DNA of 64,000 nucleotides from Pseudalkalibacillus salsuginis. GTDB taxonomy: Bacteria > Bacillota > Bacilli > Bacillales > Fictibacillaceae. Where the stretch lies: NCBI RefSeq assembly GCF_021646685.1, contig NZ_JAKJHW010000001.1:620001-684000 (forward strand), in the 5' to 3' direction. This document shows positions 7,208-52,492 of the stretch, piece after piece; position 1 is the stretch's first letter; each line of letters begins with the position of its first letter. Both the position numbers and the translations under genes were made by a program. The notes beneath the pieces were generated by a model, which was not told the DNA's origin, made no database searches, and worked only from the letters and a program-made list of their open reading frames with translations.

Positions 7208-7360
7208 AAAGAAAAGCGCAAACGCCCTGATTAGCCACGAAGGTCACTGGAAGTCCGACGAGGAGGCTGTTGCCGCCGCAGGAGGACTGAAGTGATCCAA
7301 GTGGTTGGGCGTTGGAGCTAGACATTCCTTCATCGATACAAATTTTATCCATTTATAACC
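7208..7360 (+). repeat. Dispersed repeat, module A, internally deleted (copy 1)
   Basis: Begins AAAGAAAAGCGCAAACGCCC and ends near CTAGACAT, with a diverged tail. Compared with the full copies at 16346, 40247 and 52283 it lacks the central GAACC...GGTTC hairpin block. The base of the fold, AACGCCC against GGGCGTT, is a perfect 7-bp stem. It lies directly after the ten-T tract of the phoR terminator. The 509 bp between polA and phoR hold no gene. Confidence 0.85.
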
Positions 7361-7396
7361 AAAAAAAAAAGACGAGAGTCCGTAGGTACACTCTCG
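7361..7396 (-). terminator. phoPR terminator
   Basis: CGAGAGT (7373-7379) pairs with ACTCTCG (7390-7396), and a run of ten T follows on the minus strand. It lies about 100 bp after the phoR stop. Confidence 0.85.
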
Positions 7397-7494
7397 CCAT
7401 CAATAAGGGGATCCTTTTGAAAAGGATTTTCAAATTCAGTCTAGCAAAGGTTTATGAAGCACGAATCTCATGGGTGTTAATGTTGTGTAAATTT

Positions 7495-9216
7495 TCAGTC
7501 TTGTCTCATTTTGAAAAAGGCTAATGTAAACGTTGTGCCAACATCCTTCTTGCTCGTCACCTTGACCTGCCCTTTATGGGCTTCTACCAAGTGCTTGACG
7601 ATCGCAAGACCTAGTCCTGTTCCACCAGAGTTACGGCTCCGAGCCTTATCGACTCTGTAAAATCGTTCAAAGACACGAGGAATTTCATCTTCATTGATAC
7701 CAATCCCCGTATCTTTAACTTCAAGGTAGACCTTTTCATGATCATCTTTTCCAGTAATCCATACAGTCCCGCCATTCGGAGTATAGGAAAAAGCATTGTT
7801 CAACAAATTGATCAAGATTTGTTTAAGACGCGCAGAATCACCCTCGATCCTAAGGTCCCCCTCTAACTCGACGAACACCTTGATCTGTTTCTCCTCCGCA
7901 CTCGGCTCAAGCAACGTAACCGTATCATTGACGATCGTTTCCAAATTGATCGACTGCCAGTTCAATTGGAAATTGGATTGCTCCATTTTCGTGAATTCAA
8001 GCAAATCCTGTATTAGATTTTGAAGACGATCACTTTCTTTCCAGATGATCGTTAAAAACTTCTTCCGCAACTCTTTGCTTTCCATTGCTCCATCCAATAG
8101 GGTTTCAGTAAACCCTTTCAGCGACGTGACTGGGGTACGCAACTCATGGGATACATTCGCTACAAAATCTTTCCTCATTTGTTCAAGGTTCTTTAATTCC
8201 GTGATATCATGGAAAACCAGAACGATTCCTTTGATTTTATCTTTATGCCCAAGGATCGGAACGCACGTGATATGAAAATGTTTTCGGTCAATCCCGATTG
8301 ACAATGTCACCTGTTTTCTGACAGTCGATTCTGTAAGGAACGCTTCATCGACCAGACCAATGACATCTTTGTTCGGAATGATTTCATGATACAGCTTATC
8401 ATTCCATGCCTTCGAATCAATTCCAAAAATGGTTTTGTAGGCTCTGTTCATCAAATTGATATAACCTTTAGAATCAATCAATAATAATCCGCTGTCCATA
8501 TTCTCGATAACGGTGGACATCCGTTCTTGTTCCGATTCCCTCAATTCCGTGATCTGCTCCAAATTTCGGGCAAGGATATTAAGGGAATGGTTCAGTTCAC
8601 CAGTCTCTTTCAACTGATATTCATGCGTCCTGGCTTTGAAATTACCACGAGCCAGTTCTTTCGCCACCCGCATTGCATCATCGACAGGCTTTGCAAGCTT
8701 ACCAGTCAATCGGAAGGTGACAGCGATCAACAGAGCATAGCTAACCAGGATGGTCAATAAGATCGGAATCCAATAACGACGTACTTCATTCGTCAACTTG
8801 CGCTTCTCAGTGGAAATGACCAGGTAATCAGAAGATGGCTGTCCAGGTGAAAGGGTCAAAACAAAATCAACCCTGTCATCCCTCTCGACTCTCTCTACGT
8901 GATCAGATGGACTGAATAGATCTTGATTGGTGAAAGGAGGCTTCTCAAATGTCGTTGCCGAAACCTCTCCCTCCTTTGTTATGTAAGAAATCTCTCCATC
9001 AATGTATTCCTTATACCAAGTCAATGCGGACTGCAGCTGTTCTGTTTCAGGATCGACAGCACGAGAAACAAGTTCAAGCTGGGTGACATAGGACTCAAAC
9101 TGCTCTCGCTCCATTGCTCCTATTGAGAGATTAGCAATCGCAAAACTTAGCAATAAGAAAATACCGCTTGTAAAAATGATGAAAGAATTTAAGATCCTTC
9201 CGCGAAAATTAACCAT
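7495..9216 (-). CDS. phoR: Phosphate-limitation sensor histidine kinase PhoR
   Basis: 573 aa. Two membrane helices (about 9-30 and 150-172) flank an extracytoplasmic domain. A HAMP linker, a PAS domain (about 235-340), a HisKA domain with His357 in VSHELRTP and an HATPase_c domain (NLLNNAF, DTGIGI, GGTGLGL) follow. It phosphorylates PhoP when phosphate is scarce; in B. subtilis the PAS region senses cell wall teichoic acid intermediates. The ATG directly follows the phoP stop (TAAATG) with only a weak ribosome binding site, which points to translational coupling. A terminator and a repeat lie downstream. Confidence 0.93.
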   Translation of the reverse strand: MVNFRGRILNSFIIFTSGIFLLLSFAIANLSIGAMEREQFESYVTQLELVSRAVDPETEQLQSALTWYKEYIDGEISYITKEGEVSATTFEKPPFTNQDLFSPSDHVERVERDDRVDFVLTLSPGQPSSDYLVISTEKRKLTNEVRRYWIPILLTILVSYALLIAVTFRLTGKLAKPVDDAMRVAKELARGNFKARTHEYQLKETGELNHSLNILARNLEQITELRESEQERMSTVIENMDSGLLLIDSKGYINLMNRAYKTIFGIDSKAWNDKLYHEIIPNKDVIGLVDEAFLTESTVRKQVTLSIGIDRKHFHITCVPILGHKDKIKGIVLVFHDITELKNLEQMRKDFVANVSHELRTPVTSLKGFTETLLDGAMESKELRKKFLTIIWKESDRLQNLIQDLLEFTKMEQSNFQLNWQSINLETIVNDTVTLLEPSAEEKQIKVFVELEGDLRIEGDSARLKQILINLLNNAFSYTPNGGTVWITGKDDHEKVYLEVKDTGIGINEDEIPRVFERFYRVDKARSRNSGGTGLGLAIVKHLVEAHKGQVKVTSKKDVGTTFTLAFFKMRQD

Positions 9217-9924
9217 TTATTGAGGCCCATCCAATTTATACCCTAACCCGCGAATTGTTTTAATATAAATTGGCTTCCTTGTGTTATGCTCTATCTTTTC
9301 CCGCAAATGGCTGATATGCACATCGACAATCCTCGTATCCCCGACAAAATCATAATCCCAGATCGCATTCAGCAATTGTTCACGGGAAAGGACTCTTCCA
9401 CGGTTTTTGACCAGATAGACGAGAAGTTCAAACTCTTTTGGTGTAAGTTCAAGCGGCTCTCCCTCAAAAAAGGCTTCATAATTGTCAGGAAACACCTTCA
9501 ATTCCCCGACTTTCATAGACTCAAGATCATCCCGGTTTTGGTTTTGAGAAGAAACGTATTGACTTCTTCTTAAAATCGCTTTAACCCGAGCTACAACTTC
9601 ACGAGGACTGAATGGCTTGGTCAAGTAATCATCAGCCCCAAGCTCCAAACCTAAAACCTTGTCGAACTCATCATCTTTAGCAGTTAACATAAGAATAGGA
9701 ATAAGATGCTGTGATTGACGGAGATTCTTACAGACATCCAATCCATCCATTTCGGGCAGCATTAAGTCCAATACGATCAAATCAGGGTGTTCTTCACGAG
9801 CTAGCTCAAGTCCGGTAACACCATCCATAGCCGTGATCACTTCGAAACCTGCTTGTTCAAGGTTGAATTGTAATAAGGTATTGATTGACTCCTCATCTTC
9901 AATTACTAGTATTTTCTCTTTCAT
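9217..9924 (-). CDS. phoP: Phosphate regulon response regulator PhoP
   Basis: OmpR-family regulator of 235 aa. The receiver domain (about 1-120) has the acidic pair EDEE and the phosphorylation site Asp53 in VLDLMLPE, with Lys in TKPF. The C-terminal winged helix contains LTPKEFELLVYL and TIRGLGYKL. I start it at the ATG at 9924, six nt after GGAG; a GTG at 9936 is possible but overlaps the ribosome binding site GAGGTGGAG. Forms the two-component pair with phoR and lies downstream of the TCA genes as in B. subtilis. Confidence 0.94.
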   Translation of the reverse strand: MKEKILVIEDEESINTLLQFNLEQAGFEVITAMDGVTGLELAREEHPDLIVLDLMLPEMDGLDVCKNLRQSQHLIPILMLTAKDDEFDKVLGLELGADDYLTKPFSPREVVARVKAILRRSQYVSSQNQNRDDLESMKVGELKVFPDNYEAFFEGEPLELTPKEFELLVYLVKNRGRVLSREQLLNAIWDYDFVGDTRIVDVHISHLREKIEHNTRKPIYIKTIRGLGYKLDGPQ

Positions 9925-9992
9925 CTTAAGCTCCACCTCATATTGGACATAATTTTGATTTTATTTTTACACATTAGAGCCGAAAAAAAAAC

Positions 9993-10015
9993 AAAAAAGA
10001 CGAAAACGTCTCTTT
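9993..10015 (-). terminator. Terminator of the MaoC-like gene
   Basis: Short hairpin AGACG-AAAA-CGTCT followed by TTTTTTG on the minus strand, between the MaoC-like gene and phoP. Confidence 0.75.
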
Positions 10016-10038
10016 TGTTACCGAATTTTTACACTGGC

Positions 10039-10515
10039 TTAAAAATTATCGAAGGTTCTAGATGTGATCGAGCGTGGTGCATAAGGCGGACATACTTCGA
10101 GTTCTCCGTCGATGACGAGAGTTTCGTCCTCATCATAACCTTTGACTATGACTGTCACAAGATGTTTCTCCGAATCTACATTCGTGATTTCGAATTTGAG
10201 TACAATCGTTGCATAATGGTAGACAGGCTTCGGAAATGAAATCGTCTGTTTTAAAATTGAACTTCCCGGACCTGGAAGGTATTTACTCACAGCAGAAGTT
10301 ATGAAACCGGTCAGCATGATCTGCGGGACGACTGGTTTTTTAAACGGTGTCAGTGAAGCATAATCATGTTGGATATATAGCGGATTATTGTCATCCGTCA
10401 AACCTAGATAGAGGAGAAGATCTTTATCATGAATTGTTTCCGTGATTTCTAGTTTTTCCCCAACGTTCATTTCATCAATTTTTCTTCCAAGCTTGCGTTT
10501 TTTACCTAGTAGCAT
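10039..10515 (-). CDS. MaoC-like hot-dog fold protein
   Basis: 158 aa. The segment LGLTDDNNPLYIQHDYA resembles the hydratase motif of MaoC/R-specific enoyl-CoA hydratases (D-x-N-P...), followed by GFITSAVSKYLPGPGS and the beta strands of a single hot-dog domain. Members act on acyl-CoA substrates, but the usual histidine after the NP is not in its standard place, so activity is uncertain. The open frame extends 39 codons upstream; the start is set at the ATG at 10515 because GAGGAGGGAACTGAC precedes it. It lies between mdh and phoP and is separated from both by terminators. Function unassigned. Confidence 0.7.
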   Translation of the reverse strand: MLLGKKRKLGRKIDEMNVGEKLEITETIHDKDLLLYLGLTDDNNPLYIQHDYASLTPFKKPVVPQIMLTGFITSAVSKYLPGPGSSILKQTISFPKPVYHYATIVLKFEITNVDSEKHLVTVIVKGYDEDETLVIDGELEVCPPYAPRSITSRTFDNF

Positions 10516-10602
10516 GTCAGTTCCCTCCTCGTGAAGTAAGCGTTTACACCATTTTAAAAAAGGAAATGCCAGATGAATAGAAACATTCTGACATTGTGGT
10601 GT

Positions 10603-10716
10603 AAGAAATGCGCAAACGCCCTGATCAGCCACGAAGGAGGACTGAAATGATCCAAGTGGCTGGGCGCTGAGCTGGACATTGCTTCATTGCAACAAAATAT
10701 TTATGCTTTCTTATCG
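10603..10716 (+). repeat. Dispersed repeat, module A, short form (copy 2)
   Basis: Begins CGCAAACGCCCTGATCAGCC and ends TTTATGCTTTCTTATCG. The central third of the module is missing. CAGCCAC at 10625-10631 pairs with GTGGCTG at 10656-10662 without mismatch. Together with the copy at 16346 this stem shows two compensatory changes. Confidence 0.85.
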
Positions 10717-10754
10717 TGTATAGAATACTTGGTAAAGCCAAGCCTAGGCGAAGG

Positions 10755-10841
10755 CTGAGCCTTAGTTACACTTATACTTAGTTCGTAAACTTTTCTGCTA
10801 CGTCGGTTAGCTACATCGCTGAAAAGTTATACTTTCTTAAG
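10755..10841 (+). repeat. Dispersed repeat, module B (copy 2)
   Basis: Nearly identical to 33130-33219: CTGAGCCTTAGTTACAC..., a hairpin-forming AACTTTTC...GAAAAGTT, and the terminal TATACTTTCTTAAGG. It abuts the T-tract of the mdh terminator. The 380 bp between the MaoC-like gene and mdh are filled by the two modules and the terminator. Confidence 0.85.
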
Positions 10842-10848
10842 GTGTAAA

Positions 10849-10876
10849 GAAAAAATTCGAGAAAGATTCCCGAATT
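10849..10876 (-). terminator. citZ-icd-mdh terminator
   Basis: On the minus strand AATTCGGGA pairs with TCTCGAATT with one mismatch, followed by TTTTTTC. It lies 22 bp after the mdh stop. Confidence 0.75.
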
Positions 10877-10898
10877 CCTCCTTTTCAGTGTTCCATTA

Positions 10899-11837
10899 TT
10901 AAGCTAAAACATTCATGACGGTACGGACTGAGTCTGCCGATTTATCCAATTCAGCTTTCTCATCTTCTGTAAGGTCAAGCTCGATAATTTCTTCCAAGCC
11001 ATTCCCGCCGAGGATAGTCGGTACACCTAAGCAGATTCCATCGTATCCATACTCACCTTCAAGATAAGCGATGGCAGGAAGTACACGTCGTTGGTCTTTG
11101 AGGATCGCTTCAATCATTTCAACAAGAGAGGCAGCAGGTGCATAATAGGCACTGCCGTTACCTAATAATTGTACGATTTCCCCTCCACCCTTACGTGTAC
11201 GCTCGATGATTGCATTCAAACGCTCCTTGCTGATCAACTTGTCTAATGGGATTCCTCCGGCATTGGAGTAACGGATCAATGGAACCATATCGTCTCCATG
11301 TCCACCAAGGACGAATCCACGGATATCTTTTACTGAAAGGTTGAGTTCTTCCGCAACGAAAGTACAGAAACGAGCAGTGTCAAGAATGCCAGACTGACCG
11401 ATCACTCGGTGTTTAGGGAAACCAGATTCTTTAAGCACTGTGTAAGTCATAGCATCAACCGGATTCGTCAATACGATGATCGTACAATCAGGAGAATATT
11501 TTACAATCTTCTGCGTTACACTCTTCATGATCTTAGCATTCGTATTGACCAGATCATCACGGCTCATACCTGGCTTGCGGGCAATACCTGCAGTAATTAC
11601 GACAATGTCAGAACCGGCAGTATCTTCATAATTTGCAGTCCCTGTAATCTTCGCGTCGAACCCTTGAACAGGGCTTGCTTCAAGCATATCAAGCGCTTTA
11701 CCCTTCGTAGGGTTTTCCATGTCGGGAATATCTACAAGGACAACATCACCAAGTTCTTTTTGACCAGTGATGAATGCTGTAGTGGCTCCAGTAAAGCCGC
11801 CGCCGATTACGGAAATTTTATTACGTCTGTTTGCCAT
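10899..11837 (-). CDS. mdh: Malate dehydrogenase
   Basis: 312 aa, LDH-like NAD-dependent malate dehydrogenase, TCA cycle. Nucleotide fold [13 protein letters not shown] at the N-terminus, substrate arginine region [23 protein letters not shown], and the catalytic histidine in [12 protein letters not shown]. The start is taken as the second in-frame ATG (11837): AAGGGGAG lies 6 nt before it, whereas the ATG at 11843 directly abuts the box. Only 12 bp separate it from icd, so citZ-icd-mdh is one run with terminators outside it. Confidence 0.96.
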
Positions 11838-11849
11838 GTCCATCTCCCC

Positions 11850-13121
11850 TTACGCCATATTTTTGATAAGTTCATTACCGAACTCAGAAGTCTTCACTTC
11901 AGTAGCGCCTTCCATAAGACGTGCGAAGTCGTATGTGACGACTTTGCTTGCAATCGTCTTCTCCATTGATTTCATAACTAATTCGGCTGCTTCAGTCCAT
12001 CCGATATGTTCTAATAATAAAACACCTGAAAGGATGACTGAAGATGGATTCACTTTATCTAACCCAGCATATTTTGGAGCTGTTCCATGTGTCGCTTCAA
12101 AGATTGCATGTCCGGTTTCATAGTTGATGTTTGCTCCTGGTGCAATACCGATTCCACCTACTTGGGCAGCAAGGGCATCAGACACATAGTCACCGTTCAA
12201 GTTCATAGTTGCTACAACATCAAATTCTGCAGGGCGTGTAAGGATTTGTTGAAGGAAAATATCCGCAATCGCATCCTTGATGATGATCTTGCCAGCAGCT
12301 TCAGCATCAGCTTGTGCCTTGTTTGCAGCTTCTTTACCATCTGCCTCTACAATACGGTCATATTCAGCCCATGTGAACACTTTATCTCCAAATTCCTGTT
12401 CGGCTACTTCATAACCCCAGTTCTTGAATGCTCCTTCCGTAAACTTCATGATGTTTCCTTTATGGACAAGTGTTACGCTCTTGCGTCCTTCATTCAATGC
12501 ATATTGGATTGCAGCACGCACAAGACGTTTCGTCCCTTCTTCTGATACCGGTTTAATCCCGATTCCAGATGTTTCAGGGAAACGGATTTTATTTGCACCC
12601 ATTTCCTCTTGAAGGAATTTGATGACTTTCTTGACTTCATCCGTCCCTTTGGCAAATTCGATTCCAGCATAGATATCCTCAGTGTTCTCACGGAAAATAA
12701 CCATGTCAGTATCTTCTGGTTTTTTAAGTGGTGATGGAACTCCAGTGAAATAACGAACCGGACGCAAGCAAGTGAAAAGATCCAATTCTTGGCGTAATGC
12801 TACGTTCAATGAGCGGATACCGCCACCAATAGGAGTTGTCAATGGTCCTTTGATCGCGAGTATGTATTCACGAATCATATCAAGAGTTTCGTCAGGGAGC
12901 CATTCACCAGTTTGGTCAAAAGCTTTCTGTCCTGCAAGGACTTCCGTCCAAACAATTTCTTTTTCTCCGTTATATGCTTTTTCAACTGCTGCTTCCAATA
13001 CTTTAGACGCTGCAGCCCAAATGTCCGGTCCAATACCGTCTCCTTCGATGAAAGGAATGATCGGCTTGTCCGGTACATTCAGTACCCCATTATCTACTGT
13101 AATACGTTCTCCGTTTGACAA
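11850..13121 (-). CDS. icd: NADP-dependent isocitrate dehydrogenase
   Basis: 423 aa, the standard length for the Bacillus/E. coli type. Ser104 in RSLNVALRQ is the isocitrate-binding serine that can be phosphorylated in this family. Further conserved parts are [11 protein letters not shown], the [11 protein letters not shown] loop and [11 protein letters not shown] in the NADP site. It makes 2-oxoglutarate and NADPH. Sits between citZ and mdh, as in B. subtilis citZ-citC-citH. Start ATG preceded by AGGAGGTAATTA. Confidence 0.97.
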
Positions 13122-13273
13122 GTTAATTACCTCCTGCTAAGAAATCTAATTTTTCATTTATTATCGTAACAAAAACACTTGGAAATGACTCATAAAAGGT
13201 ATCTGATGAAGTTGGACTTCCCATGCTCAATCTCATCCGACACTTTTGAAGTGAGCCGATACGTTCATTCCAA

Positions 13274-14389
13274 TCAGCGGTTTTCGATCGGAACATACTT
13301 TTGCTTTGATGGTCCTGTGTACTCAGCACGCGGACGAATTAGACGGTTATTTTCATATTGTTCTAGGATGTGTGCAAGCCAGCCGGAAACCCTGCTCATT
13401 GCAAAAATCGGTGTAAAAAGATCATGTTTTAGACCCAGGCTGTGATAGACGGATGCTGAATAGAAATCGACATTAGGTAGTAAGCCCTTTTCATTTTTCA
13501 TCAATTCATCAAGTTTCACAGACATATCGTACCATTTTGATTCACCCGTGATGTCCGTCAATTGTTTAGACATTTCACGAAGGTGTTTTGCCCGAGGATC
13601 TCCATCCTTATAGACGCGGTGTCCAAATCCCATTATTTTTTCCTTGCGTTCAAGCGCTTTTTTCAAATAGGATTCTACATTTTCCGGGTCACCGATTTCC
13701 GTAAGCATCTTCATGACCCTTTCATTGGCTCCGCCGTGAAGAGGTCCTTTCAATGCACCGATTGCAGCTGTTACACCTGAATATACATCGGATAGTGTTG
13801 CCACACAAACACGGGCTGTAAATGTAGAAGCGTTTAGCTCATGATCCGCATGAAGTACTAATGCTTTATTGACCGCTTTTTCGGAAATCTCATCAGGCTC
13901 TTTTCCGTTAAGCATGTACAAAAAGTTTGCAGCATAGCTAAGTTTTGAATTCGGCTGGATGACTTCCTGCCCATCACGTAAGCGGGATAATGCAGCGACG
14001 ATGGATGAAAGCTTCGCTTGAAGGCGGATCGCCTTCGTGAAATTCGCATCTTCACTCATTTCATCAGCTTCGCTGTCATATAATCCTAACGCTGATACTG
14101 CAGTTCTCACCGCGGCCATTGGGTGGATTTCATCAAGCGGAAAGCTTTTCATCATATCCAATACTTGTTCTGGCAAAGCATAGTGCTTGGATAACTCAGC
14201 ATTGAAGTCATCCAGTTCCTTTCGGTTAGGCAACTTACCATACCAAAGCAGGTAAACAACCTCTTCAAAACTTGCATAATCTGCAAGATCATCAATATTG
14301 TAGCCGCGGTAAGTCAACACACCGTCGATGATGGAACTTACCGAAGATGTAGTGGCTACAATGCCTTCTAAACCTCTAGTTGTGGTCAT
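13274..14389 (-). CDS. citZ: Citrate synthase
   Basis: 371 aa, short Gram-positive type. Catalytic His in GPLHGGANE, second His in MGFGHRVYK and Asp in NVDFYSASVY are all present. Condenses acetyl-CoA and oxaloacetate and is the first gene of citZ-icd-mdh; 152 bp separate it from icd. In B. subtilis the promoter is controlled by CcpC, CcpA and CodY. The region upstream here holds a perfect inverted repeat and a cre-like sequence (see 14485-14534). Confidence 0.96.
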   Translation of the reverse strand: MTTTRGLEGIVATTSSVSSIIDGVLTYRGYNIDDLADYASFEEVVYLLWYGKLPNRKELDDFNAELSKHYALPEQVLDMMKSFPLDEIHPMAAVRTAVSALGLYDSEADEMSEDANFTKAIRLQAKLSSIVAALSRLRDGQEVIQPNSKLSYAANFLYMLNGKEPDEISEKAVNKALVLHADHELNASTFTARVCVATLSDVYSGVTAAIGALKGPLHGGANERVMKMLTEIGDPENVESYLKKALERKEKIMGFGHRVYKDGDPRAKHLREMSKQLTDITGESKWYDMSVKLDELMKNEKGLLPNVDFYSASVYHSLGLKHDLFTPIFAMSRVSGWLAHILEQYENNRLIRPRAEYTGPSKQKYVPIENR

Positions 14390-14484
14390 GGCCTTCTCTC
14401 CTTTTAATAGATTGAAATCTCTGTTCTCTTAATACAATAAAGCCTGCGCCCAAAAAGTGACGAACTTCTTGTATCAAAGGAAAA

Positions 14485-14534
14485 TGTTTACTCCATAGTA
14501 AACACATTAATCAAGGAAGGATAAAACGCATACA
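14485..14534. promoter_or_regulatory. Candidate operator and cre-like site upstream of citZ
   Basis: TGTTTACT-CCAT-AGTAAACA (14485-14504) is a perfect 8-bp inverted repeat about 95 bp upstream of the citZ start. Next to it, ATAAAACGCATACA (14521-14534; complement TGTATGCGTTTTAT) resembles the catabolite-responsive element with about two mismatches. Both would suit carbon control of the TCA genes. The factor binding the first site is not identified; the sequence does not look like the CcpC ATAA-N7-TTAT pattern. Confidence 0.45.
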
Positions 14535-14620
14535 TATCAATTATAAACAAGTTTCTAAACTTTGTGAATGCATACGACTCGAAAACCTTAATCTATCAAT
14601 GAAATTCTCTTGTAGGTTGG

Positions 14621-15082: not shown

Positions 15083-15181
15083 TCTTTCCTTCCTTTCTAA
15101 TTAACATTGAATCTTCATGCTATGAATTGTAAAATAATACTATTCCACAGGGTGGAGACCCCTGCGAAAGGATCGAGGCCG

Positions 15182-16300: not shown

Positions 16301-16345
16301 TATAAAAAAAGATTTAGGCTCATTTCAGCTCCATTTTTCTGAACC

Positions 16346-16555
16346 GAAGAAAAGCGCAAGCGCCCTGGCTAACCATGAAGGTCACTGGAAGTCCGGCAAG
16401 GAGGCTCGAACCAAACCAAGTTCGGTTCTGCGTGGGTAAACCCTTCGACCTAAATCAATGTGGGGCCGCCGCAGGGGGACTGAAGTGATCCAAGTGGTTA
16501 GGCGTTGGAGCTAGACATCATATCGCCGCAACCAAAATTGTATACTTTCTTATCC
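16346..16555 (+). repeat. Dispersed repeat, module A, full length (copy 3)
   Basis: Full module: left end AAAGCGCAAGCGCC, central hairpin (GAACC...GGTTC), CTTCGACCTAAATCAATGTG, GCCGCCGCAG, GGACTGAAGTGATCCAAG and right end TATACTTTCTTATCC. CTAACCA (16368-16374) pairs with TGGTTAG (16496-16502). This differs from CAGCCAC/GTGGCTG of copy 2 by paired changes. Lies next to the fxsA terminator. Confidence 0.88.
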
Positions 16556-16564
16556 TTTGTAATT

Positions 16565-16599
16565 AAAACTGGACTGACTTTTAGTGTCAGTCCAGTTTT
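16565..16599. terminator. Bidirectional terminator between ytvI and fxsA
   Basis: A perfect 14-bp stem (16565-16578 with 16586-16599, core ACTGGACTGAC) with A-rich and T-rich ends works in both directions for the convergent genes. Confidence 0.85.
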
Positions 16600-32993: not shown

Positions 32994-33219
32994 AAAGAAA
33001 AGCGCAAGCGCCCTGGTCAGCCACGCAGGCCACTGGAAGTTAGACGAGGAGGCTTAACCAAACAAAGTTCGGTTCTGGGTGGGTAAACCCTTCGACCTAA
33101 ATCAATGTGTCGCCGCCGTAGAAGAAAGACTGAGCCTTAGTTACACACTTATACTTAGTTCGTAAACTTTTCTGCTGTTCCGGTTAGCTACTTCGCTAAA
33201 AAGTTATACGTTCTTAACG
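32994..33219 (+). repeat. Dispersed repeat, A left half fused to module B (copy 5)
   Basis: 32994-33120 is the left half of module A (AAAGAAAAGCGCAAGCGCCC, central GTTCGGTTC hairpin, CGCCGCCGTAG). From about 33128 it continues as module B (GACTGAGCCTTAGTTACAC... to TTATACGTTCTTAACG). The right half of A, including the 3' arm of the basal stem, is absent. It abuts the T-tract of the ald terminator and occupies most of the 447 bp between ytkL and ald. Confidence 0.85.
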
Positions 33220-33255
33220 TGAAAAAAAGAGACTAGCCACCTGCAGGCCAGTCTC
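33220..33255 (-). terminator. ald terminator
   Basis: GAGACTAGCC (33229-33238) pairs with GGCCAGTCTC (33246-33255) with one mismatch; seven T follow on the minus strand. Confidence 0.85.
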
Positions 33256-33271
33256 GATGTTCATTAAACAT

Positions 33272-39278: not shown

Positions 39279-39390
39279 GGTATAATTCCTCCTAACATAC
39301 ACTAGTCCTATTGTAACAAATACATGTAGAATCACCGAATCAAAGTACCTTAGATTTGAAGTTACTGGGATGGTGCTTATGATGTCATGA

Positions 39391-39537
39391 TATTCTGTTC
39401 ACTTCCAAGATTAATTTGTTCACTTCACAGGATAATCTGTTCACTTCACAGCATAATCTGTTCACACTCAGGAATATTCTGTTCACTTCTCAGCATAATT
39501 TGTTCGCTTCCAGGAATAATCTGTTAACTTCTAAGGG
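39391..39537. repeat. Tandem array of seven 21-bp units
   Basis: Seven contiguous units of exactly 21 bp, starts at 39391, 39412, 39433, 39454, 39475, 39496 and 39517. Consensus TAATCTGTTCACTTC followed by a variable six (CAGGAA-like). The core TGTTCACTTC is the best conserved part. The array sits between the ytxK-like gene and the tpx terminator. On the minus strand one frame is open (repeat S-C-E-V-N-R-L), but no start or ribosome binding site supports a gene. The 380-bp gap holds nothing else besides the terminator. Confidence 0.95.
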
Positions 39538-39559
39538 TGGTGATGTCAATCCTTCCAAA

Positions 39560-40246: not shown

Positions 40247-40457
40247 AAGAAAAGCGTAAGCCCCCTGATCATCCACAAAGGCACTGGAAGTCCGACGAGG
40301 AGGCTCGAACCAAACAAAGTTCGGTTTTGCGCGGGCTAACACTTCCACCTAAATCAATGTGTCGACCGCCGCAGGAGGACTGAAGTGATCCAAGTGGTTG
40401 GGTGTTGGAGCTAGACATAATATCACAGAAACCAAAATTTTTATACTTTCTTAACGT
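40247..40457 (+). repeat. Dispersed repeat, module A, full length (copy 6)
   Basis: Full module: AAAAGCGTAAGCC at the left, central GAACC...GGTTT hairpin, CACCTAAATCAATGTGTCG, GGACTGAAGTGATCCAAG and TATACTTTCTTAACG at the right. The basal stem has decayed (AGCCCCC against GGGTGTT). Abuts the ytfJ terminator T-tract. It occupies most of the 363 bp between tpx and ytfJ. Confidence 0.88.
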
Positions 40458-40459
40458 AC

Positions 40460-40504
40460 AAAAAAGCTGGCCGAGAACATCGGTTCAAGCGATGTTCGGC
40501 CAGC
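40460..40504 (-). terminator. ytfIJ terminator
   Basis: GCTGGCCG-GAACATCG and CGATGTTC-GGCCAGC form a stem of about 15 pairs with a 7-nt loop, followed by six T on the minus strand. Confidence 0.9.
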
Positions 40505-44304: not shown

Positions 44305-44315
44305 CCATGCTTTAT

Positions 44316-44403
44316 AAAATTAGAGGACTCTCGAGACCTTAAATCATGGACTTTCAGCACTGGTTCTAGCCGAACAGCAGTAGAGATGTCCTCTAATTTT
44401 TTT
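44316..44403 (+). terminator. Composite terminator between nadF and ytcJ
   Basis: AAAATTAGAGGAC (44316-44328) pairs perfectly with GTCCTCTAATTTT (44388-44400), 13 bp, followed by TTT. The 59-nt loop contains at least one further hairpin (ACTG-GTTC...GAAC-AG-CAGT) and the palindrome TCTCGAGA. It is unusually large for an intrinsic terminator. Confidence 0.7.
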
Positions 44404-44457
44404 AAATCACCAGATACTGCTGCCCCCCAATGAGTCAGAAACTGATCGGATCATCGT

Positions 44458-46044: not shown

Positions 46045-46165
46045 CTTTACACTCCAATCACTAACCTCGTTTGTATCAGCATACCTAAGATTTACTAGGA
46101 AATCTAGTATGGAGAACGTAGTATAAACCTGCTGAGAAGTCATGTTTTTGCTCGAGAAAAATCGA

Positions 46166-46187
46166 AAGGACCGTCTGTACGGCCCTT
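46166..46187 (-). terminator. Terminator of the acyl-CoA synthetase gene
   Basis: AAGG(A)CCGT and ACGG(C)CCTT arms with a 4-nt loop, T-rich on the minus strand (TTTCGATTTTTC). It overlaps the end of the region between ytcI and ytcJ. Confidence 0.65.
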
Positions 46188-46192
46188 CAATT

Positions 46193-47782
46193 TTAATATA
46201 CTGTTGTGTTGGCTTCTTTCATCCTCAATTCGATCCTCCTGATCTTACCCGAGGTCGTTTTCGGGAGTTCCTCGATGAATTCGATTTTACGCGGATATTT
46301 ATAAGGTGCGGTGAGTTCTTTCACATGGTCTTGCAGTGCCGGTATCAATTCCTCCGAAGAAGCTTCCGCTGGATTTTTCAAAACGATGTAGGCTTTGACG
46401 ACATGGCCGCGAACCTCATCAGGACTTGCTACAACCGCACACTCTTTTACAGAAGGGTGCTTGACGAGAGCATCTTCGACTTCAAACGGTCCAATCGTAT
46501 AACCTGAGCTGATGATGATGTCATCCCCTCTGCCTTCGAACCAGAAGTACCCGTCTTCATCTTTTTTCGCTTTGTCACCTGTCAGATAATAATCGCCACG
46601 AAAGGCCATTATGGTCCGTTCATGATCTTTATAATATTCTTTGAACAGTGCTGGTACATCCCGATGGACAGCGATGTCCCCTACCTCTCCCACTTGAGCA
46701 GGCTTGCCTTCATCATTAATGATTTCTACACGGTTTCCAGGCGTCGGTTTGCCCATTGATCCAGGGCGGACTTCCATCCCTTCCACAATACCAACCAGCA
46801 ATGTGTTCTCTGTCTGGCCATAACCATCCCTGACAGTTACATTGAAATAGTTGCGGAATATATCGATGACTTCACGGTTCAGCGGTTCTCCAGCTGAGAC
46901 CGCACTTCTCAAGCTTGAAAGATCGTAATCTTTCAGGTTATCCACTTTTGCCATCAACCGGTACTCAGTCGGTGTACAGCAAAGGACATTGATCTGTTCC
47001 TTCTCCAACAAACCTAGATATGTATTCGGGTCGAATTTGCCGTTGTAGACATACCCTGTCGAACCCGTACCTAGAACAGATACGAATGGACTCCAGATCC
47101 ACTTTTGCCATCCAGGACCGGCGGTCGCCCATACAATATCACCTTCATTGATATTCAGCCATGATTTAGCTGCGGTCCGGATATGAGCATAGGTCCACCC
47201 ATGTGTATGGACGACACCTTTCGGCTGGCCAGTTGTTCCAGATGTATAGGAAAGAAAGGCCGTATCATCACGTATGGTTTTCGGCATTTCAACAGATGGG
47301 TCCAGCGATTGGATCACTTCCTCGGCCGTCGACCATCCCTCAACATATCCGCCGACTGTAATTTTATGCTCCAAACTTTCGACAGGTTCCTCAATTTCAT
47401 CAATGAGAGAAGTCAAAGGTTCATAAGCGATCACTGCTTTCACTTCCCCATGATTGATACGATAACTTAAATCTGCAGGCCTGAGCATTTCAGAACAAGG
47501 AATGACGACAAGACCTGATTTCAAAATGGCCAGATATACTTTGTACGTGTCAATCAAACGCGGCATCAAGACGAGGATACGGTCACCTTTGCCTAATCCT
47601 AAAGATAGAAGAGCCTTTGCTAAATCATTTGCTTGATCAAATAACTCTTTGTATGTGATTTCATCTATTACCCCCTGCTCGCTGCGGTACTTGATCGCTA
47701 AACGTGATGGATCATTCGCAAACTTTTCCATTTCTTCAGTTGCATTGTACTGTTGAGGAGCAATTAATGCTTGGTTATTCAA
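46193..47782 (-). CDS. ytcI: Acyl-CoA synthetase (YtcI-like, ANL superfamily)
   Basis: 529 aa. Adenylate-forming enzyme that activates a carboxylic acid with CoA. P-loop-like FLSYTSGTTGQPKGVVHTHG, VRDGYGQTENTL, YLTGDKAKKDEDGYFWFEGR with the hinge Asp, and the C-terminal Lys in PKTTSGKIRR. Resembles medium-chain or branched-chain acyl-CoA synthetases more than strict acetate enzymes. TTG start at 47782 behind AAGGAGGCGTCCAC; an ATG 7 codons upstream lies before the ribosome binding site. Confidence 0.88.
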   Translation of the reverse strand: MNNQALIAPQQYNATEEMEKFANDPSRLAIKYRSEQGVIDEITYKELFDQANDLAKALLSLGLGKGDRILVLMPRLIDTYKVYLAILKSGLVVIPCSEMLRPADLSYRINHGEVKAVIAYEPLTSLIDEIEEPVESLEHKITVGGYVEGWSTAEEVIQSLDPSVEMPKTIRDDTAFLSYTSGTTGQPKGVVHTHGWTYAHIRTAAKSWLNINEGDIVWATAGPGWQKWIWSPFVSVLGTGSTGYVYNGKFDPNTYLGLLEKEQINVLCCTPTEYRLMAKVDNLKDYDLSSLRSAVSAGEPLNREVIDIFRNYFNVTVRDGYGQTENTLLVGIVEGMEVRPGSMGKPTPGNRVEIINDEGKPAQVGEVGDIAVHRDVPALFKEYYKDHERTIMAFRGDYYLTGDKAKKDEDGYFWFEGRGDDIIISSGYTIGPFEVEDALVKHPSVKECAVVASPDEVRGHVVKAYIVLKNPAEASSEELIPALQDHVKELTAPYKYPRKIEFIEELPKTTSGKIRRIELRMKEANTTVY

Positions 47783-47874
47783 AGTGGACGCCTCCTTATG
47801 CATTCGTTTACACTTTCTATTATACATAATCTTTAGAAAATTTCTATTTTGGGTGGATGATGAAACACCACAAA

Positions 47875-47896
47875 GGCCAGCATCATTGTGCTGACC
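47875..47896 (-). terminator. SASP gene terminator
   Basis: GGCCAGCA (47875-47882) and TGCTGACC (47889-47896) form the stem with one mismatch; TTTGTGG follows on the minus strand. Confidence 0.7.
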
Positions 47897-47929
47897 TGTA
47901 TTCCATCAATATCTTATTGTAGAGGTGTA

Positions 47930-48121
47930 TTATTTTTGAGGTTGTTGACCTTGAGCCATAGCAACTAGACGCTTAGTGATTTCACCACCAACAGATCCGT
48001 TAGCACGAGCTGGAGAGTCAGCACCAAGTTGTACTCCGAATTCAGAAGCAATCTCAGCCTTCATAGCGTTAAGAGCTTGTTCAGCACCAGGTACGACCAA
48101 TTTGTTTGATTGACGAGCCAT
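47930..48121 (-). CDS. sspA: Small acid-soluble spore protein, alpha/beta type
   Basis: 63 aa. Coats and protects spore DNA. Contains the germination protease site EIASEFGV and the DNA-binding C-terminal helix [16 protein letters not shown]. Start at the ATG at 48121 after AAAGGAGGTGAATATC; upstream in-frame codons precede the ribosome binding site. Neighbours thiI and ytcI as in B. subtilis sspA. Expected to be under SigG. Confidence 0.95.
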
Positions 48122-48211
48122 GATATTCACCTCCTTTGTATGCATAGGTTACGGAGGTAAAGATGAATTCATACTCGATTGGGGGTGGTAAATCTTGAAA
48201 GAGAAGGAAGG

Positions 48212-49420
48212 TTAAAACAAGTCCTCCAACGCATCATGACGGGTTTCGGCGTCCTCTTTAAAATAAACTGTTTCGGTATTACCCACAGCTTCCTCGACAA
48301 GTGCATCGATTTCCATAAATTGCTCAAATCGATTCGCTTTTTCCCGTCGAGGCTTTGTTTTGGGAGCAGATGGCAAGAACACCGTACAGCAATCCTCATA
48401 TGGTCGGATTGAGATATCGTACGTCCCGATCCTCCTTGATATCTCCATGATTTCGATCTTATCCATTGTGATCAATGGTCTGATGATCGGCAAGTTGGTC
48501 ACCTCATTGATCGTATTCATGCTGGATAAGGTTTGACTGGCTACCTGACCCAGGCTTTCCCCTGTCGCAATCGCCAGAGCATCATTCTGGGCTGCCAACT
48601 GCTCTGTGATTCGAAGCATATACCGCCGCATGATGGTCATACTGTAATTATCCGGAATTTGTTTTTTGATTGCTTTTTGAATGTCTGTAAAAGGAACTAC
48701 ATGCATTTTGATCGTTCCACCGAACTTGGTAAGAACTTTCGTCAGGTCCTCCACTTTTTGCCTTGCTCTTTCACTTGTAAAAGGGGGACTGTGAAAATGA
48801 ACCATTTCCAGGCGGATTCCCCGTTTCATTGTCAGATATCCAGCGACAGGACTGTCAATACCACCTGATAGCATCAGCATGACTTTGCCGCTGCTTCCGA
48901 TCGGCAACCCTCCAGCGCCGGGATAATCGATACAACTGATATAAGTTGCTTCCGGTTTGATCTCCACTTTTATCTCTACATCAGGATGATGGACATCTAC
49001 AGTAATGTTTTCGGAGTGTTTCAATACATAACCGCCGATCAAATGGTTCAACTCCTGTGAATCATGGGGATACTGCTTATAATTACGTTTGGTGGAAACC
49101 TTGAATGTCTCTACTGAAGAACCTGCTTCTCTCAAAGCCTTAAGTGCTGTCTTTTGGATGTTTTCCAATTCAAGATCGGTTCTGACAGCAAGGGTCAATC
49201 CTTGGATACCGAATACTTCTTGCAACTTTTCTACCACCGGTTCATGATCTTCTCCATTCAACTCAATATACATACGATCAAACGCTTTCTTTACTGTGAC
49301 ACCTTCAAAAGGCTTCAATTTTCTTCGGATCGTATCCCTAAGCTGGTTTACAAAATGATGTCTGTTTTTCCCTTTAAGTGACAACTCACCGTATTTGACA
49401 ATGATATGGTCGTAAATCAT
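48212..49420 (-). CDS. thiI: tRNA 4-thiouridine synthetase ThiI
   Basis: 402 aa. N-terminal ferredoxin-like and THUMP domains (about 1-165), then the PP-loop ATPase with LMLSGGIDSPVAGYL. It lacks the C-terminal rhodanese domain of E. coli ThiI, as usual in bacilli, and so needs the dedicated desulfurase NifZ next to it. Adenylates U8 of tRNA; the Cys in CCTVFLPSAPKTKP-like segment may take part in sulfur transfer. Starts 1 bp after the nifZ stop. Confidence 0.94.
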   Translation of the reverse strand: MIYDHIIVKYGELSLKGKNRHHFVNQLRDTIRRKLKPFEGVTVKKAFDRMYIELNGEDHEPVVEKLQEVFGIQGLTLAVRTDLELENIQKTALKALREAGSSVETFKVSTKRNYKQYPHDSQELNHLIGGYVLKHSENITVDVHHPDVEIKVEIKPEATYISCIDYPGAGGLPIGSSGKVMLMLSGGIDSPVAGYLTMKRGIRLEMVHFHSPPFTSERARQKVEDLTKVLTKFGGTIKMHVVPFTDIQKAIKKQIPDNYSMTIMRRYMLRITEQLAAQNDALAIATGESLGQVASQTLSSMNTINEVTNLPIIRPLITMDKIEIMEISRRIGTYDISIRPYEDCCTVFLPSAPKTKPRREKANRFEQFMEIDALVEEAVGNTETVYFKEDAETRHDALEDLF

Positions 49421-49421
49421 A

Positions 49422-50567
49422 TTAGTACCTCATTACTTTCGTTAAATTATTAAGAATATCCTCAAGGATGGCAATAAAACGTTCTCCCTCGTTCATTGTG
49501 TTATCAAAACTCAGGCTTATACGGATAGCACTGCTTGCCCGTTTAAGTTCATAGCCTGTAGCTTCCAATACCCTGCTGACCTCTGTCGACTTAGAGGAAC
49601 AAGCAGATTTTGTCGAGACAAAAACGTCTCTTTCTTCTAAAGAATGGATCAACACTTCTGGCTTGATACCCGGAACAGAAAAATTGATGATATGAGGGGC
49701 ACTTTGTTTCTCAGGTGTATTTAGGACAACTCCTTCAATTTCCACCAATTTTGACCGTAAAAGACGATTTAATCGAAGAAGCCCATCCATTTCTTTTTTT
49801 GATTTTTCCATCGTCAAACGGAGAGCTTTTGCCATTGCAATGATTCCAGGTATATTTTCTGTTCCAGCCCGATGTTTGAATTCTTGCGATCCTCCATGAA
49901 GCAGAGGCGATAGCGTTACACCATTGCGAATATATAAGATTCCAACACCTTTTGGCCCATGGAATTTATGGCTCGAGAAAGAACATAGATCAACACCCGA
50001 TTGTACATACTGAAGGGGGACTTTTCCTATTCCCTGGACGTGATCGACATGGAAAAAGATCTTCGGATGTTTTTTTAGAAATTGACCGATTTCCTCCACA
50101 GGTTGAATCGTCCCTATTTCATTATTGACATGCATGACAGAGACAAGGATCGAATCATGCCTGATTGCGTTCCGAAGGTCCTGGATTGACACATGACCAT
50201 TCCTATCTACAGGTAGAAACGTTATATCAAAGCCGAGATGCTCCAGCTGCCTAAAGGATTCATAACAGGAAGCATGTTCAATTTCAGTCGAAATCAGATG
50301 TTTCCCCCGTGTCTGATGTTCAATTGCAATCCCTTTTATCGCCAGGTTATTCGCTTCTGTTCCACCTGAAGTGAATACAACCTCACCAGGATTCACCCGA
50401 AGGAGGCCAGCAATTTGATTGCGCGCAGTACTGATCAACTTTTCCACTTCTCCTCCTAAGCGGTGGATCGATGAAGGATTCGCAAAGTAACTCTCAGAGA
50501 CCGTCATATATGTTTTCAGTGCTTCAGGATAAGGTTTTGTAGTTGCACTATTATCGAAATAAATCAT
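49422..50567 (-). CDS. nifZ: Cysteine desulfurase NifZ (ThiI partner)
   Basis: 381 aa, class V aminotransferase fold. FDNSATTKPYPE start, His in VMHVNNEIGTIQP region, PLP lysine in SSHKFHGPKGVG and the reactive Cys in TKSACSSKSTEV. It supplies persulfide sulfur to ThiI for 4-thiouridine. Overlap-close with thiI (operon nifZ-thiI), as in B. subtilis. ATG start at 50567; ribosome binding site AAAGGGGTAAAGGA. Confidence 0.93.
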   Translation of the reverse strand: MIYFDNSATTKPYPEALKTYMTVSESYFANPSSIHRLGGEVEKLISTARNQIAGLLRVNPGEVVFTSGGTEANNLAIKGIAIEHQTRGKHLISTEIEHASCYESFRQLEHLGFDITFLPVDRNGHVSIQDLRNAIRHDSILVSVMHVNNEIGTIQPVEEIGQFLKKHPKIFFHVDHVQGIGKVPLQYVQSGVDLCSFSSHKFHGPKGVGILYIRNGVTLSPLLHGGSQEFKHRAGTENIPGIIAMAKALRLTMEKSKKEMDGLLRLNRLLRSKLVEIEGVVLNTPEKQSAPHIINFSVPGIKPEVLIHSLEERDVFVSTKSACSSKSTEVSRVLEATGYELKRASSAIRISLSFDNTMNEGERFIAILEDILNNLTKVMRY

Positions 50568-50891
50568 TATTCCTTTACCCCTTTTATATTCGTATTACTG
50601 CATCATTTAATAATAGCATATATAGGCTTGATTCCAAACCAAGAAATAAAACGTATGTACTCGACACAAAATGACAAAAAATACTTTTCTTCTTAAAGGT
50701 CGTTCACCTACTAGTTTCAGAAGAAAGCCGAAATATATGCAAGAAATTAAGAGGTGTTCAAACATTGGGAATCGATACAATTTTTCAACTTTTTTCTAAA
50801 GTGTCTATTTTATATAAAGATTATGTTAAGCTTTAACCGATTTTAGAAAACTCAATGATTTCAGTCGATAATTGCACGGAGGTTTTACAGC
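50568..50891. other. Divergent intergenic region nifZ / brnQ
   Basis: 324 bp, AT-rich, must hold both promoters. A TATATAAAG stretch at about 50810-50820 could be the -10 region of brnQ. I looked for a CodY box and a T-box and found neither convincingly. No ORF. Confidence 0.4.
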
Positions 50892-52238
50892 ATGAAAGCA
50901 ACAAAATCACTTCCTTTTAAAGAAACATTAACTATCGGACTTATGATGTTCGCTCTATTCCTCGGAGCAGGCAATATGATATTTCCTCCTCTGCTTGGTC
51001 AAACTGCAGGAACCAATGTATGGACTGCCATTTTCGGCTTTCTGATCACTGGTGCCGGCCTGCCGCTTGTAGGCATAGTTGCCGTAGGACTGACAGGGGG
51101 AACGTTGAAGGATTTAGCTAGTCGAGTCCATCCTGCTTTTGCCATCATCTTTTCAACATTAATCTATTTGGCGATTGGACCTTTTTTCGGAATACCACGA
51201 ACAGGTACAGTTGCATTTGAAATAGGTGCAGTTCCTTTTTTGCCTGAAACAATGAATCCGAACGGCTTGCCATTATTCATCTATACAGTCATCTTTTTCA
51301 CGATTACATTTTGGGTTGCTTTGAATCCAACGAAACTTGTGGATCGGATCGGTAAGATTTTAACACCGATTCTCATTTTTGTGATCGGACTTATCGTGAT
51401 TAAAGGAATTATCAATCCGATTGGAAACTTTTCAACTCCTACAGGTGAGTACGCATCCAACTCTTTCTTTACCGGGTTCATCAATGGATATTTGACAATG
51501 GATGCGATTGCAGCACTCGTTTTCGGAATTGTGGTCATCAATGCTGTAAAATCCCGAGGGGTTACTGATAAAAAAGAGATTGCTAAGGCCACAACAAAAG
51601 CAGGGTTCATCGCTGTCAGCGGATTAGCATTGGTATATCTCTCACTTGCCTATATCGGAGCAACTAGTCGAAACGTTTTAGGAGAAAGTGACAATGGAGG
51701 AGCGATCCTAACTGGAGCCGCAGATCTTTTATTCGGTCAATTTGGCATCATGTTGCTGGCAATAGCCATTACATTTGCCTGTCTGACAACTTCAATCGGA
51801 TTAGTAACAGCTTGTGGCGAATATTTCAATGGAATCATGCCGAAAGTATCGTATAAATTGATCATCGCTGTATTATGTTTGTTCAGTGCAGCTGTAGCCA
51901 ATGTCGGCCTCACCCAATTGATCAACTTGACATTGCCAGTATTGATCGGCATTTATCCCCTTGCCATTGCATTAGTCGCCTATTCCTTCTTGCATCGCCA
52001 TTTTGGAGGCTATCGAGAAGTATATATAGGCGGGCTGTTAGGGGCAGGAGTTGTGAGCATCTTTGATGCCTTAAAGCAAATGAATGTTGATATAACTGTG
52101 TTCAACAATGTCATGAGTGCCTATCTGCCGCTTTACGAGCAAGGTGTAGGATGGGTGATTCCTTCATTGATCGGAGCGATCATAGGATATGTCATCGGAC
52201 GATCACAAAACCACGTCATCACACCTAATAAAGCCTAA
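50892..52238 (+). CDS. brnQ: Branched-chain amino acid transporter, BrnQ/LIVCS family
   Basis: 448 aa, about 12 membrane helices. The N-terminal signature TIGLMMFALFLGAGNMIFPP is typical of LIVCS sodium- or proton-coupled importers of leucine, isoleucine and valine. Further conserved: AIGPFFGIPRTGTVAFEIG. ATG behind CGGAGGTTTTACAGC. B. subtilis carries braB at this position. Convergent with ezrA; a repeat and terminator lie between. Confidence 0.92.
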   Translation: MKATKSLPFKETLTIGLMMFALFLGAGNMIFPPLLGQTAGTNVWTAIFGFLITGAGLPLVGIVAVGLTGGTLKDLASRVHPAFAIIFSTLIYLAIGPFFGIPRTGTVAFEIGAVPFLPETMNPNGLPLFIYTVIFFTITFWVALNPTKLVDRIGKILTPILIFVIGLIVIKGIINPIGNFSTPTGEYASNSFFTGFINGYLTMDAIAALVFGIVVINAVKSRGVTDKKEIAKATTKAGFIAVSGLALVYLSLAYIGATSRNVLGESDNGGAILTGAADLLFGQFGIMLLAIAITFACLTTSIGLVTACGEYFNGIMPKVSYKLIIAVLCLFSAAVANVGLTQLINLTLPVLIGIYPLAIALVAYSFLHRHFGGYREVYIGGLLGAGVVSIFDALKQMNVDITVFNNVMSAYLPLYEQGVGWVIPSLIGAIIGYVIGRSQNHVITPNKA

Positions 52239-52282
52239 AGAGGCGTTGTCAATCCCCTGGGTAAATGAAAAATCTTCAGCAT

Positions 52283-52492
52283 AAAGAAAAGCGCAAACTC
52301 CCTGATCAGCCACGAAGGTCACTGGAAGTCCGACGAGGAGACTCGAACCAAACAAAGTTCGGTTCTGCGTGGGTAACACTTCGACCTAATCAATGTGTCG
52401 GCCGCCGCAGGAGGACTGAAGGGATCCAAGGGGTTGAGCGTTGGAGCTGGACATCACATCACCGCAACCAAAATTTTTATACTTTCTTAACG
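52283..52492 (+). repeat. Dispersed repeat, module A, full length (copy 7)
   Basis: Full module from AAAGAAAAGCGCAAACTCCC, with the central GAACC...GGTTC hairpin and TCGGCCGCCGCAGGAGG, to TATACTTTCTTAACG. Abuts the ezrA terminator stem. Confidence 0.88.

What the first reader, a model, noticed from the sequence alone, without database searches (positions are those of the whole stretch)
7208..52492. Dispersed structured repeat family placed directly behind leftward terminators
Six to seven copies of a repeat of about 115-240 bp (7208, 10603, 16346, 32994, 40247, 52283, plus the tail at 1) share ends (AAAGAAAAGCGC... and ...TATACTTTCTTAACG). All have the same orientation, and six end within about 15 nt of the T-tract of an intrinsic terminator of a minus-strand gene (phoR, mdh, fxsA, ald, ytfJ, ezrA; speD for the edge tail). 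The conserved TTAAGAAAGTATAA on the minus strand would be the first sequence a read-through polymerase meets. This is either a mobile element with a terminator-linked target site or a secondary 3'-end structure that catches read-through.
Basis: partly seen in the sequence, partly recalled or inferred. Interest (0 to 1): 0.72.

Follow-up and report, generated by a model that had tools for sequence, protein, structure and literature searches.

The report
Mobile repeats inserted behind gene terminators
The repeats look like small parasitic DNA elements that insert directly behind the 'stop transcription' signals of bacterial genes, the same place where a widespread small transposon (IS200) lands, which would explain how such elements spread without breaking genes.

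Summary
The window carries six copies of repeat R1. It also carries three copies, one fused and one cut by the edge, of a second family, R2, which shares the right-end 'tail'. In 1.14 Mb of this genome, 39 of 67 complete right ends lie beside an opposite-strand intrinsic terminator; random intergenic placement gives 2.8. Sister genomes show empty sites and turnover (of 27 mapped loci 11 scored absent in one sister, 8 of them clearly), so these are mobile elements rather than conserved 3' structures.

Read on the gene strand, an element starts with a tail (TTAAGAAAGTATAA) whose GAAAG lies about 16 nt after the T-tract starts, and ends in its own hairpin plus TTTTCTT(T)A. No target duplication was detected. 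IS200 transposons of the same order sit behind terminators with the same geometry (18 of 25 left ends; about 17 nt). Best reading: non-autonomous elements moved by an IS200-like (Y1/HUH) single-strand transposase.

Against it: no IS200 transposase was found in this genome, R1 lacks a clear left-end hairpin, and the replication-strand bias seen here (34/213 leading, 0/67 lagging terminators) is absent in the high-copy relative G002 (14/91, 8/34).

The parts
1..21 (+). R2 right end with tail (cut by window edge), then speD terminator
   Evidence: R2 profile hit C7m 219975-220021 = window -25..21; sequence
22..46 (-). T-tract and hairpin of the speD terminator (target side)
   Evidence: by eye, sequence; speD; ends approximate
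7209..7356 (+). R1 copy without middle module
   Evidence: nhmmer
7357..7396 (-). terminator of the PhoR/PnpS-type kinase gene
   Evidence: sequence, script; gene; ends approximate
10603..10715 (+). R1 copy, internally deleted
   Evidence: nhmmer
10719..10847 (+). R2 copy inserted between R1 and the mdh terminator; absent in sister genome G005
10845..10880 (-). mdh terminator
   Evidence: by eye, sequence; gene; ends approximate
16347..16554 (+). R1 copy, full length; unrelated DNA in its place in G005
16564..16594 (-). fxsA terminator
   Evidence: sequence, script; gene; ends approximate
32995..33132 (+). R1 copy, truncated, fused to R2
   Evidence: nhmmer
33098..33224 (+). R2 part with tail
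   Evidence: R2 profile hit
33222..33257 (-). ald terminator
   Evidence: by eye, sequence; gene; ends approximate
40247..40454 (+). R1 copy, full length; empty site in G005
40459..40504 (-). ytfJ terminator (T-tract and hairpin)
   Evidence: by eye, sequence; gene; ends approximate
52284..52490 (+). R1 copy, full length; empty site in G005
52494..52533 (-). ezrA terminator
   Evidence: sequence, script; gene

Best explanation
R1 and R2 are small non-autonomous mobile elements. They are cut and joined as single-stranded DNA by an IS200-like (Y1/HUH) transposase supplied in trans. On the strand of the gene, the enzyme cleaves a T-tract behind a terminator hairpin, after about TTTR, and joins the element's tail end there. 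The tail TTAAGAAAG can pair with CTTTTTTAA-like T-tracts and with the element's own other end (hairpin + CTTTTCTT(T)A), so it may act as the target guide. Shown: placement, polarity relative to the terminator, insertion at the T-tract without a detectable target duplication, turnover, and the shared geometry with real IS200 elements. Inferred: the enzyme, the single-strand route, the guide pairing.
For: Terminator adjacency: 39 of 67 ends vs 2.8 expected (G000); 34 of 86 tails vs 3.3 (G002). Empty sites with junctions at the T-tract: three R1 and two R2. Turnover: of 27 mapped G000 loci 11 scored absent in G005, 8 of them clearly; of 20 mapped G005 loci 3 scored absent in G000. No target duplication detected: the pyrimidine before the left end is not associated with that at the target (CC 2, CT 10, TC 26, TT 80; Fisher p 0.73). 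IS200 copies: 18 of 25 left ends found, among 30 loci, follow a terminator, against 538 of 14400 random intergenic points of G000. T-tract start to GAAAG in R tails: median 16, IQR 15-17 (32 tails with a terminator of 122, G000) and 15-18 (43 of 145, G002); T-tract start to GAAAAC in IS200: median 17, IQR 16-18 (18 loci). R2 of G002 has a 9-bp left-end hairpin and a right hairpin + TTTTCTTTA. In G000, 34 of 213 leading-strand but 0 of 67 lagging-strand terminators carry an element (p 6e-5), and polarity flips across oriC beside dnaA.
Against: No IS200 TnpA was found in G000, only a RAYT-like Y1 protein. G054, with 47 exact tails, has only a damaged fragment, while several genomes with a good Y1 match have no exact tail (for example G034, G042). 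R1 shows no clear left-end hairpin. In G002 elements follow lagging-strand terminators as often as leading ones (8/34 vs 14/91, p 0.30). No autonomous element with the R tail was seen in the stretches read. The end similarity to IS200 is short (GTTWAGAAA) and was judged by eye. The flank association test has little power, as only 12 of 118 left letters are C.
Confidence: 0.6

Rival explanations
1. Mobile elements moved by the RAYT (TnpA-REP) protein, that is, a REP/REPIN-like system of Bacillaceae.
For: A RAYT-like gene is the only Y1 match in G000, and an R1 copy lies just upstream of it (its NCBIfam score is below that model's cut-off). R1 is a long imperfect hairpin, like a REPIN.
Against: Similar weaker Y1 matches (model 5-119, not checked one by one as RAYT) occur in many genomes with no exact tail. 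The repeats right next to the RAYT gene are a different GGTGCCAGGCACT array. The conserved R1 foot is CTAGCTCC, not a GTAG tag.
Confidence: 0.16
2. Retro-insertion: a group IIC intron-like or other reverse-transcriptase route that inserts RNA copies behind terminators.
For: Group IIC introns insert behind terminator stem-loops (passages of PMC7923331). The element ends like a terminated transcript. Two reverse-transcriptase matches are present.
Against: No intron signature: no Rfam group II hit in the window at gathering score or on the 52-kb copy at E up to 5. IS200 gives the same placement without RNA.
Confidence: 0.08
3. Functional secondary 3'-end element (back-up terminator or read-through trap) kept by selection behind terminators.
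For: The elements end in a hairpin plus T-run on the gene strand. Placement is strongly terminator-linked. A paired stem core is kept with a few two-sided changes.
Against: 8 clear (11 scored) of 27 loci absent in a sister. Slots hold other DNA in the sister. Elements lie after an existing terminator. Only about 1 in 6 leading-strand terminators has one, and none of 67 lagging-strand ones in G000.
Confidence: 0.08
4. Ordinary TIR-type MITE moved by a DDE transposase with a 3-4 bp target duplication.
For: Short imperfect inverted ends (TTAAGAAA / TTTCTTAA). TAAA or a near copy appears on both sides of the R2 insertions.
Against: Left and right flanking letters are not associated (p 0.73; low power). 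Ends are asymmetric. Such enzymes are not expected to read terminator polarity.
Confidence: 0.08

Closest known systems
IS200 (IS200/IS605 family, Y1 HUH transposase TnpA)
   Same: Lands directly behind intrinsic terminators in the same orientation, with the left-end GAAA motif at the same distance from the T-tract; right end is a hairpin plus T-run. No target duplication is a family trait (passage of PMC7290912) and none was detected here.
   Different: R1/R2 carry no gene, have different hairpins and bodies, and their ends share only a short motif with IS200.
PATEs (palindrome-associated transposable elements, IS605-derived; Haloquadratum, PMC3119063, passages read)
   Same: Transposase-free, hairpins near the ends, no target duplication, more copies than the autonomous elements.
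   Different: Described there in an archaeon; the passages seen do not speak of terminator-directed insertion. R1 lacks a clear left hairpin.
REP/REPIN with RAYT (PMC3733652, PMC6006769, passages read)
   Same: Extragenic hairpins, often downstream of genes, Y1-type protein in the genome.
   Different: No GTAG tag, larger modular body, terminator junction.
Group IIC introns (PMC7923331, passages read)
   Same: Insert behind terminator stem-loops.
   Different: No intron core or reverse transcriptase in the element.
Bacillus cereus repeat bcr1
   Same: Small dispersed repeat of a Bacillus relative listed among MITEs (PMC3733652, passage).
   Different: Not compared by sequence here.

Membership tests
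IS200/IS605-derived non-autonomous element (PATE type) | No transposase gene; short | tested here: met
   R1 ~110-240 nt per unit, R2 ~92-130 nt; too short for a transposase, no separate ORF test
IS200/IS605-derived non-autonomous element (PATE type) | No target duplication, precise insertion | tested here: inconclusive
   No association of flank letters (low power). Of five empty sites one R2 site is exact to the letter (C7m 339258); the other four differ by one or more letters from the sister
IS200/IS605-derived non-autonomous element (PATE type) | Left end joined 3' of a fixed short target; right end carries a similar cleavage site | tested here: met
   target about TTTR, element end mostly CTT(T)A/G
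IS200/IS605-derived non-autonomous element (PATE type) | Hairpin near both ends | tested here: inconclusive
   R2 yes; R1 right side yes, left end no clear hairpin
IS200/IS605-derived non-autonomous element (PATE type) | Ends match those of an autonomous relative | tested here: inconclusive
   same spacing and a short GTTWAGAAA-like motif only
IS200/IS605-derived non-autonomous element (PATE type) | Preference for the lagging-strand template | tested here: inconclusive
   G000 34/213 vs 0/67; G002 14/91 vs 8/34, no bias
IS200/IS605-derived non-autonomous element (PATE type) | Mobilised by TnpA | not testable with these tools
   needs an assay; no IS200 TnpA found in G000
REP/REPIN (RAYT) | GTAG-type tag at the hairpin foot | tested here: not met
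   conserved foot CTAGCTCC/GGAGCTAG
REP/REPIN (RAYT) | RAYT gene flanked by the repeat | tested here: inconclusive
   one R1 copy upstream of the RAYT gene, but another repeat array is nearer
Group II intron | Intron RNA core | tested here: not met
   no Rfam group II hit in the window at gathering score nor at E up to 5 on 52240-52540
TIR MITE with target duplication | Duplicated target flanking the element | tested here: inconclusive
   flank letters not associated, p 0.73, but few C letters

The most novel reading that the evidence does not exclude
Intrinsic terminators are the landing pads of a whole layer of Bacillales mobile DNA. IS200 and several small elements with unrelated bodies share an end that can pair with the terminator T-tract. 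Each insertion leaves a new hairpin plus T-run behind, which is itself a pad for the next insertion (an IS200 copy sits behind an R1 end in L156 and, by eye, behind an R1-like end in L211), so the pads renew themselves while genes stay intact.
Probability: 0.4. Interest if true: 0.75.

Novelty: new variant of a known kind. Interest (0 to 1): 0.58.

Why it matters
It would explain a class of intergenic repeats in Bacillaceae, for which I found no description, by a single rule: insertion behind terminator T-tracts. It would also give IS200-type elements a concrete target, terminators, a 'safe harbour' that spares genes and operons. The rule is directly testable, predicts where copies will be found in genomes of the order, and bears on how terminators and 3' regions are remodelled between close species.

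Tried and rejected
Rfam: no family covers the repeat; only a T-box elsewhere in the window passes, and the hits at 52 kb are far below their families' gathering scores. Plasmid and phage records: no match at E 1e-5 in distant mode (the tool may leave out records of this genome). Strict replication coupling as the general cause: it fits G000 but fails in G002, so it was dropped as a general claim. A 3-4 bp target duplication was first suspected from R2 junctions; the flank association test gives no support for it. No autonomous R element was seen among the ten tails without an adjacent R1 body printed; these were R2 or truncated copies. RNAalifold on 24 R1 copies gave a paired core (23 pairs, 6 with two-sided changes) but almost no covariation energy (-0.05), so it is weak evidence.

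Limits of the counts. The terminator finder is my own, simple, and misses some real ones; one search used looser settings for its IS200 loci, and the random points come from G000, not from the IS200 genomes. One search left out terminators lying inside elements; one search's count of 34 of 86 did not. Genes were called by an ORF-plus-hexamer script. The genome search scored only 40 of 273 candidates, so tallies come from sampled stretches. In one search, 8 of 35 G000 loci and 4 of 24 G005 loci could not be mapped and were left out; of the 11 'absent' G000 loci, two (80341, 85917) hold R1-like fragments in G005 and one (414694) is a mapping slip, as its partner is seen, which leaves 8 clear; of the 3 'absent' G005 loci one (244202) has an R1-like remnant in G000. 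One search counts 118 of 146 rows, which include one element twice and a few chance matches; the other 28 had no readable flank letter on one side. In G000 the R1 left flank is a mix of YAA and YAAA; only in G002 and G054 is it nearly constant by family. One search took L062 (C17:1-20000) with one leading strand, which gave 32/210 and 2/70; one search showed that the skew flips inside it, so recounted with the local strand: 34/213 and 0/67. In one search the IS200 distances are the first site listed, the R distances the nearest site, which may differ by a few nt; its tails allow 2 mismatches and include chance ones. In one search, 7 of 15 loci, and, 5 of 30, had no left end found by the script and were not scored; two of the latter (L220, L221) show one by eye behind a terminator. 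Of the 7 misses, three (L209, L211, L213) have a hairpin plus T-run by eye, and two (L233, L235) look like other IS types. Three of the 25 scored loci (L212, L218, L223) had already been.

Full report
CHECK. The window is G000 C7:620001-684000 of a 4.29-Mb genome in 19 contigs. The six copies exist as stated, and the seven neighbour genes are as named. A profile of 27 copies finds 118 segments at 82 R1 loci in 1.14 Mb of this genome. The tail belongs to more than one family. A second repeat, R2, carries the same right end and owns the right ends after 10603 and 32994 and the tail at the window edge.

TERMINATORS. Of 67 complete R1/R2 right ends, 39 lie beside an opposite-strand terminator; 1000 random intergenic placements give 2.84 +- 1.63, maximum 9. 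In G002, a high-copy species of the same genus (347 exact 14-nt tails), 34 of 86 tails in 579 kb do so, against 3.3 +- 1.7, maximum 9 in 500 draws.

POLARITY. In G000, 76 of 82 R1 loci run against the leading strand, while 812 of 1043 called genes run with it. Polarity flips inside L062, where GC skew flips beside dnaA: three loci on one side, one on the other. Elements follow 34 of 213 leading-strand gene terminators and 0 of 67 lagging-strand ones (p 6e-5). The exact 13-nt tail agrees: of 53 hits in the genome, 45 lie on the seven contigs whose skew was sampled, and 44 of these have the expected strand; the other 8 lie on contigs not sampled. But G002 does not share this: 14 of 91 leading and 8 of 34 lagging (p 0.30). 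What is common to both species is that the terminator sets the orientation.

MOBILITY. G005 is collinear over most of 400 kb at about 93-97% identity. Of 27 mapped G000 R1 loci, 16 are shared and 11 scored absent in G005, 8 of these clearly so; of 20 mapped G005 loci, 17 are shared and 3 scored absent. Empty sites show the junction at the far end of the T-tract: three R1 (two of them window 40247 and 52283) and two R2, one of which sits between an R1 copy and its terminator. One R2 site is exact to the letter; the others carry small differences. At other loci unrelated DNA fills the same slot.

ANATOMY. On the gene strand: terminator hairpin, T-tract, then the element: tail (CACG)TTAAGAAAGTATAA, body, GC hairpin, CTTTTCTTA (R1) or GTTTTCTTTA (R2), then arbitrary flank. 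The tail is shared where bodies are not. The exact 25-nt tail is also in contigs named Alkalihalobacillus sp. YIM B00296 (four) and Roseburia sp. 1XD42-34 (one), whose bodies I did not read. R1-type bodies across genera keep mainly the foot AGCGCAAGCGCC...GGCGCTGGAGCTAGACA. The pyrimidine just left of the element is not associated with that at the target (p 0.73; 118 of 146 rows), so no target duplication is seen, though the test has little power.

IS200. Full-length IS200 transposase genes of other genomes proved informative. Of the first 15 loci, 8 have the GAAAACC-type left end. Seven of these follow a terminator found by script, and the eighth (G002) follows an R1 copy's own hairpin and T-run. 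In a wider draw of 299 genomes of the order, 48 have the protein, and 30 loci were fetched. A left end was found in 25 (three of them seen before), and 18 of these follow a terminator; a random intergenic point of G000 does so in 538 of 14400 draws. The distance from T-tract start to GAAAAC has median 17; in R elements T-tract start to GAAAG has median 16 in both species. R elements therefore land as IS200 does.

MECHANISM. IS200/IS605 enzymes insert 3' of a short fixed target, leave no duplication and use hairpins at both ends (passages of PMC7290912). The junctions here fit that. Strand bias is not a firm criterion: the same paper reports no apparent preference (10 of 22 on the leading strand), which leaves room for G002. 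R2 has hairpins at both ends; R1 lacks a clear left one. No IS200 TnpA was found in G000, only a RAYT-like protein, so the mover may have been lost or may be another Y1 enzyme. I hold 'mobile element aimed at terminators' as nearly certain and 'moved by an IS200-like enzyme' at about 0.6.

KNOWN OR NEW. PATEs are the nearest named kind (passages of PMC3119063). I did not find in print that IS200 or such elements target terminators, nor this repeat family (searches; open-licence papers only; listings and the passages of the five papers named above and in Closest known systems).

Noticed in passing
window 39390-39552: Six tandem copies of a 21-nt unit (..TCTGTTCACTTC..) in a gap between genes next to the ytfJ region; the array is shorter in sister G005.
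   Followed up: partly
window 60186-60311: Tandem 21-nt units around AATCCTAGAAA.
   Followed up: no
window 61700-61915: T-box leader on the minus strand (Rfam RF00230, 134.5 bits).
   Followed up: no
L071 926-1470: RAYT-like gene preceded by an R1 copy and by a tandem GGTGCCAGGCACT repeat, perhaps a REP array of its own.
   Followed up: partly
L062 (C17:1-20000) about 10.2-12.5 kb: Probable replication origin region: dnaA, GC-skew flip, and R1 polarity flip.
   Followed up: yes
G000 C7 vs G005 C70: Many other small indels between the sisters with other repeat families, e.g. GTACCAGGCACC and GAGCGCTAT tandem arrays.
   Followed up: no
L150-L159, L207-L236: IS200 elements across the order mostly sit directly behind intrinsic terminators; possibly a general IS200 rule.
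   Followed up: yes
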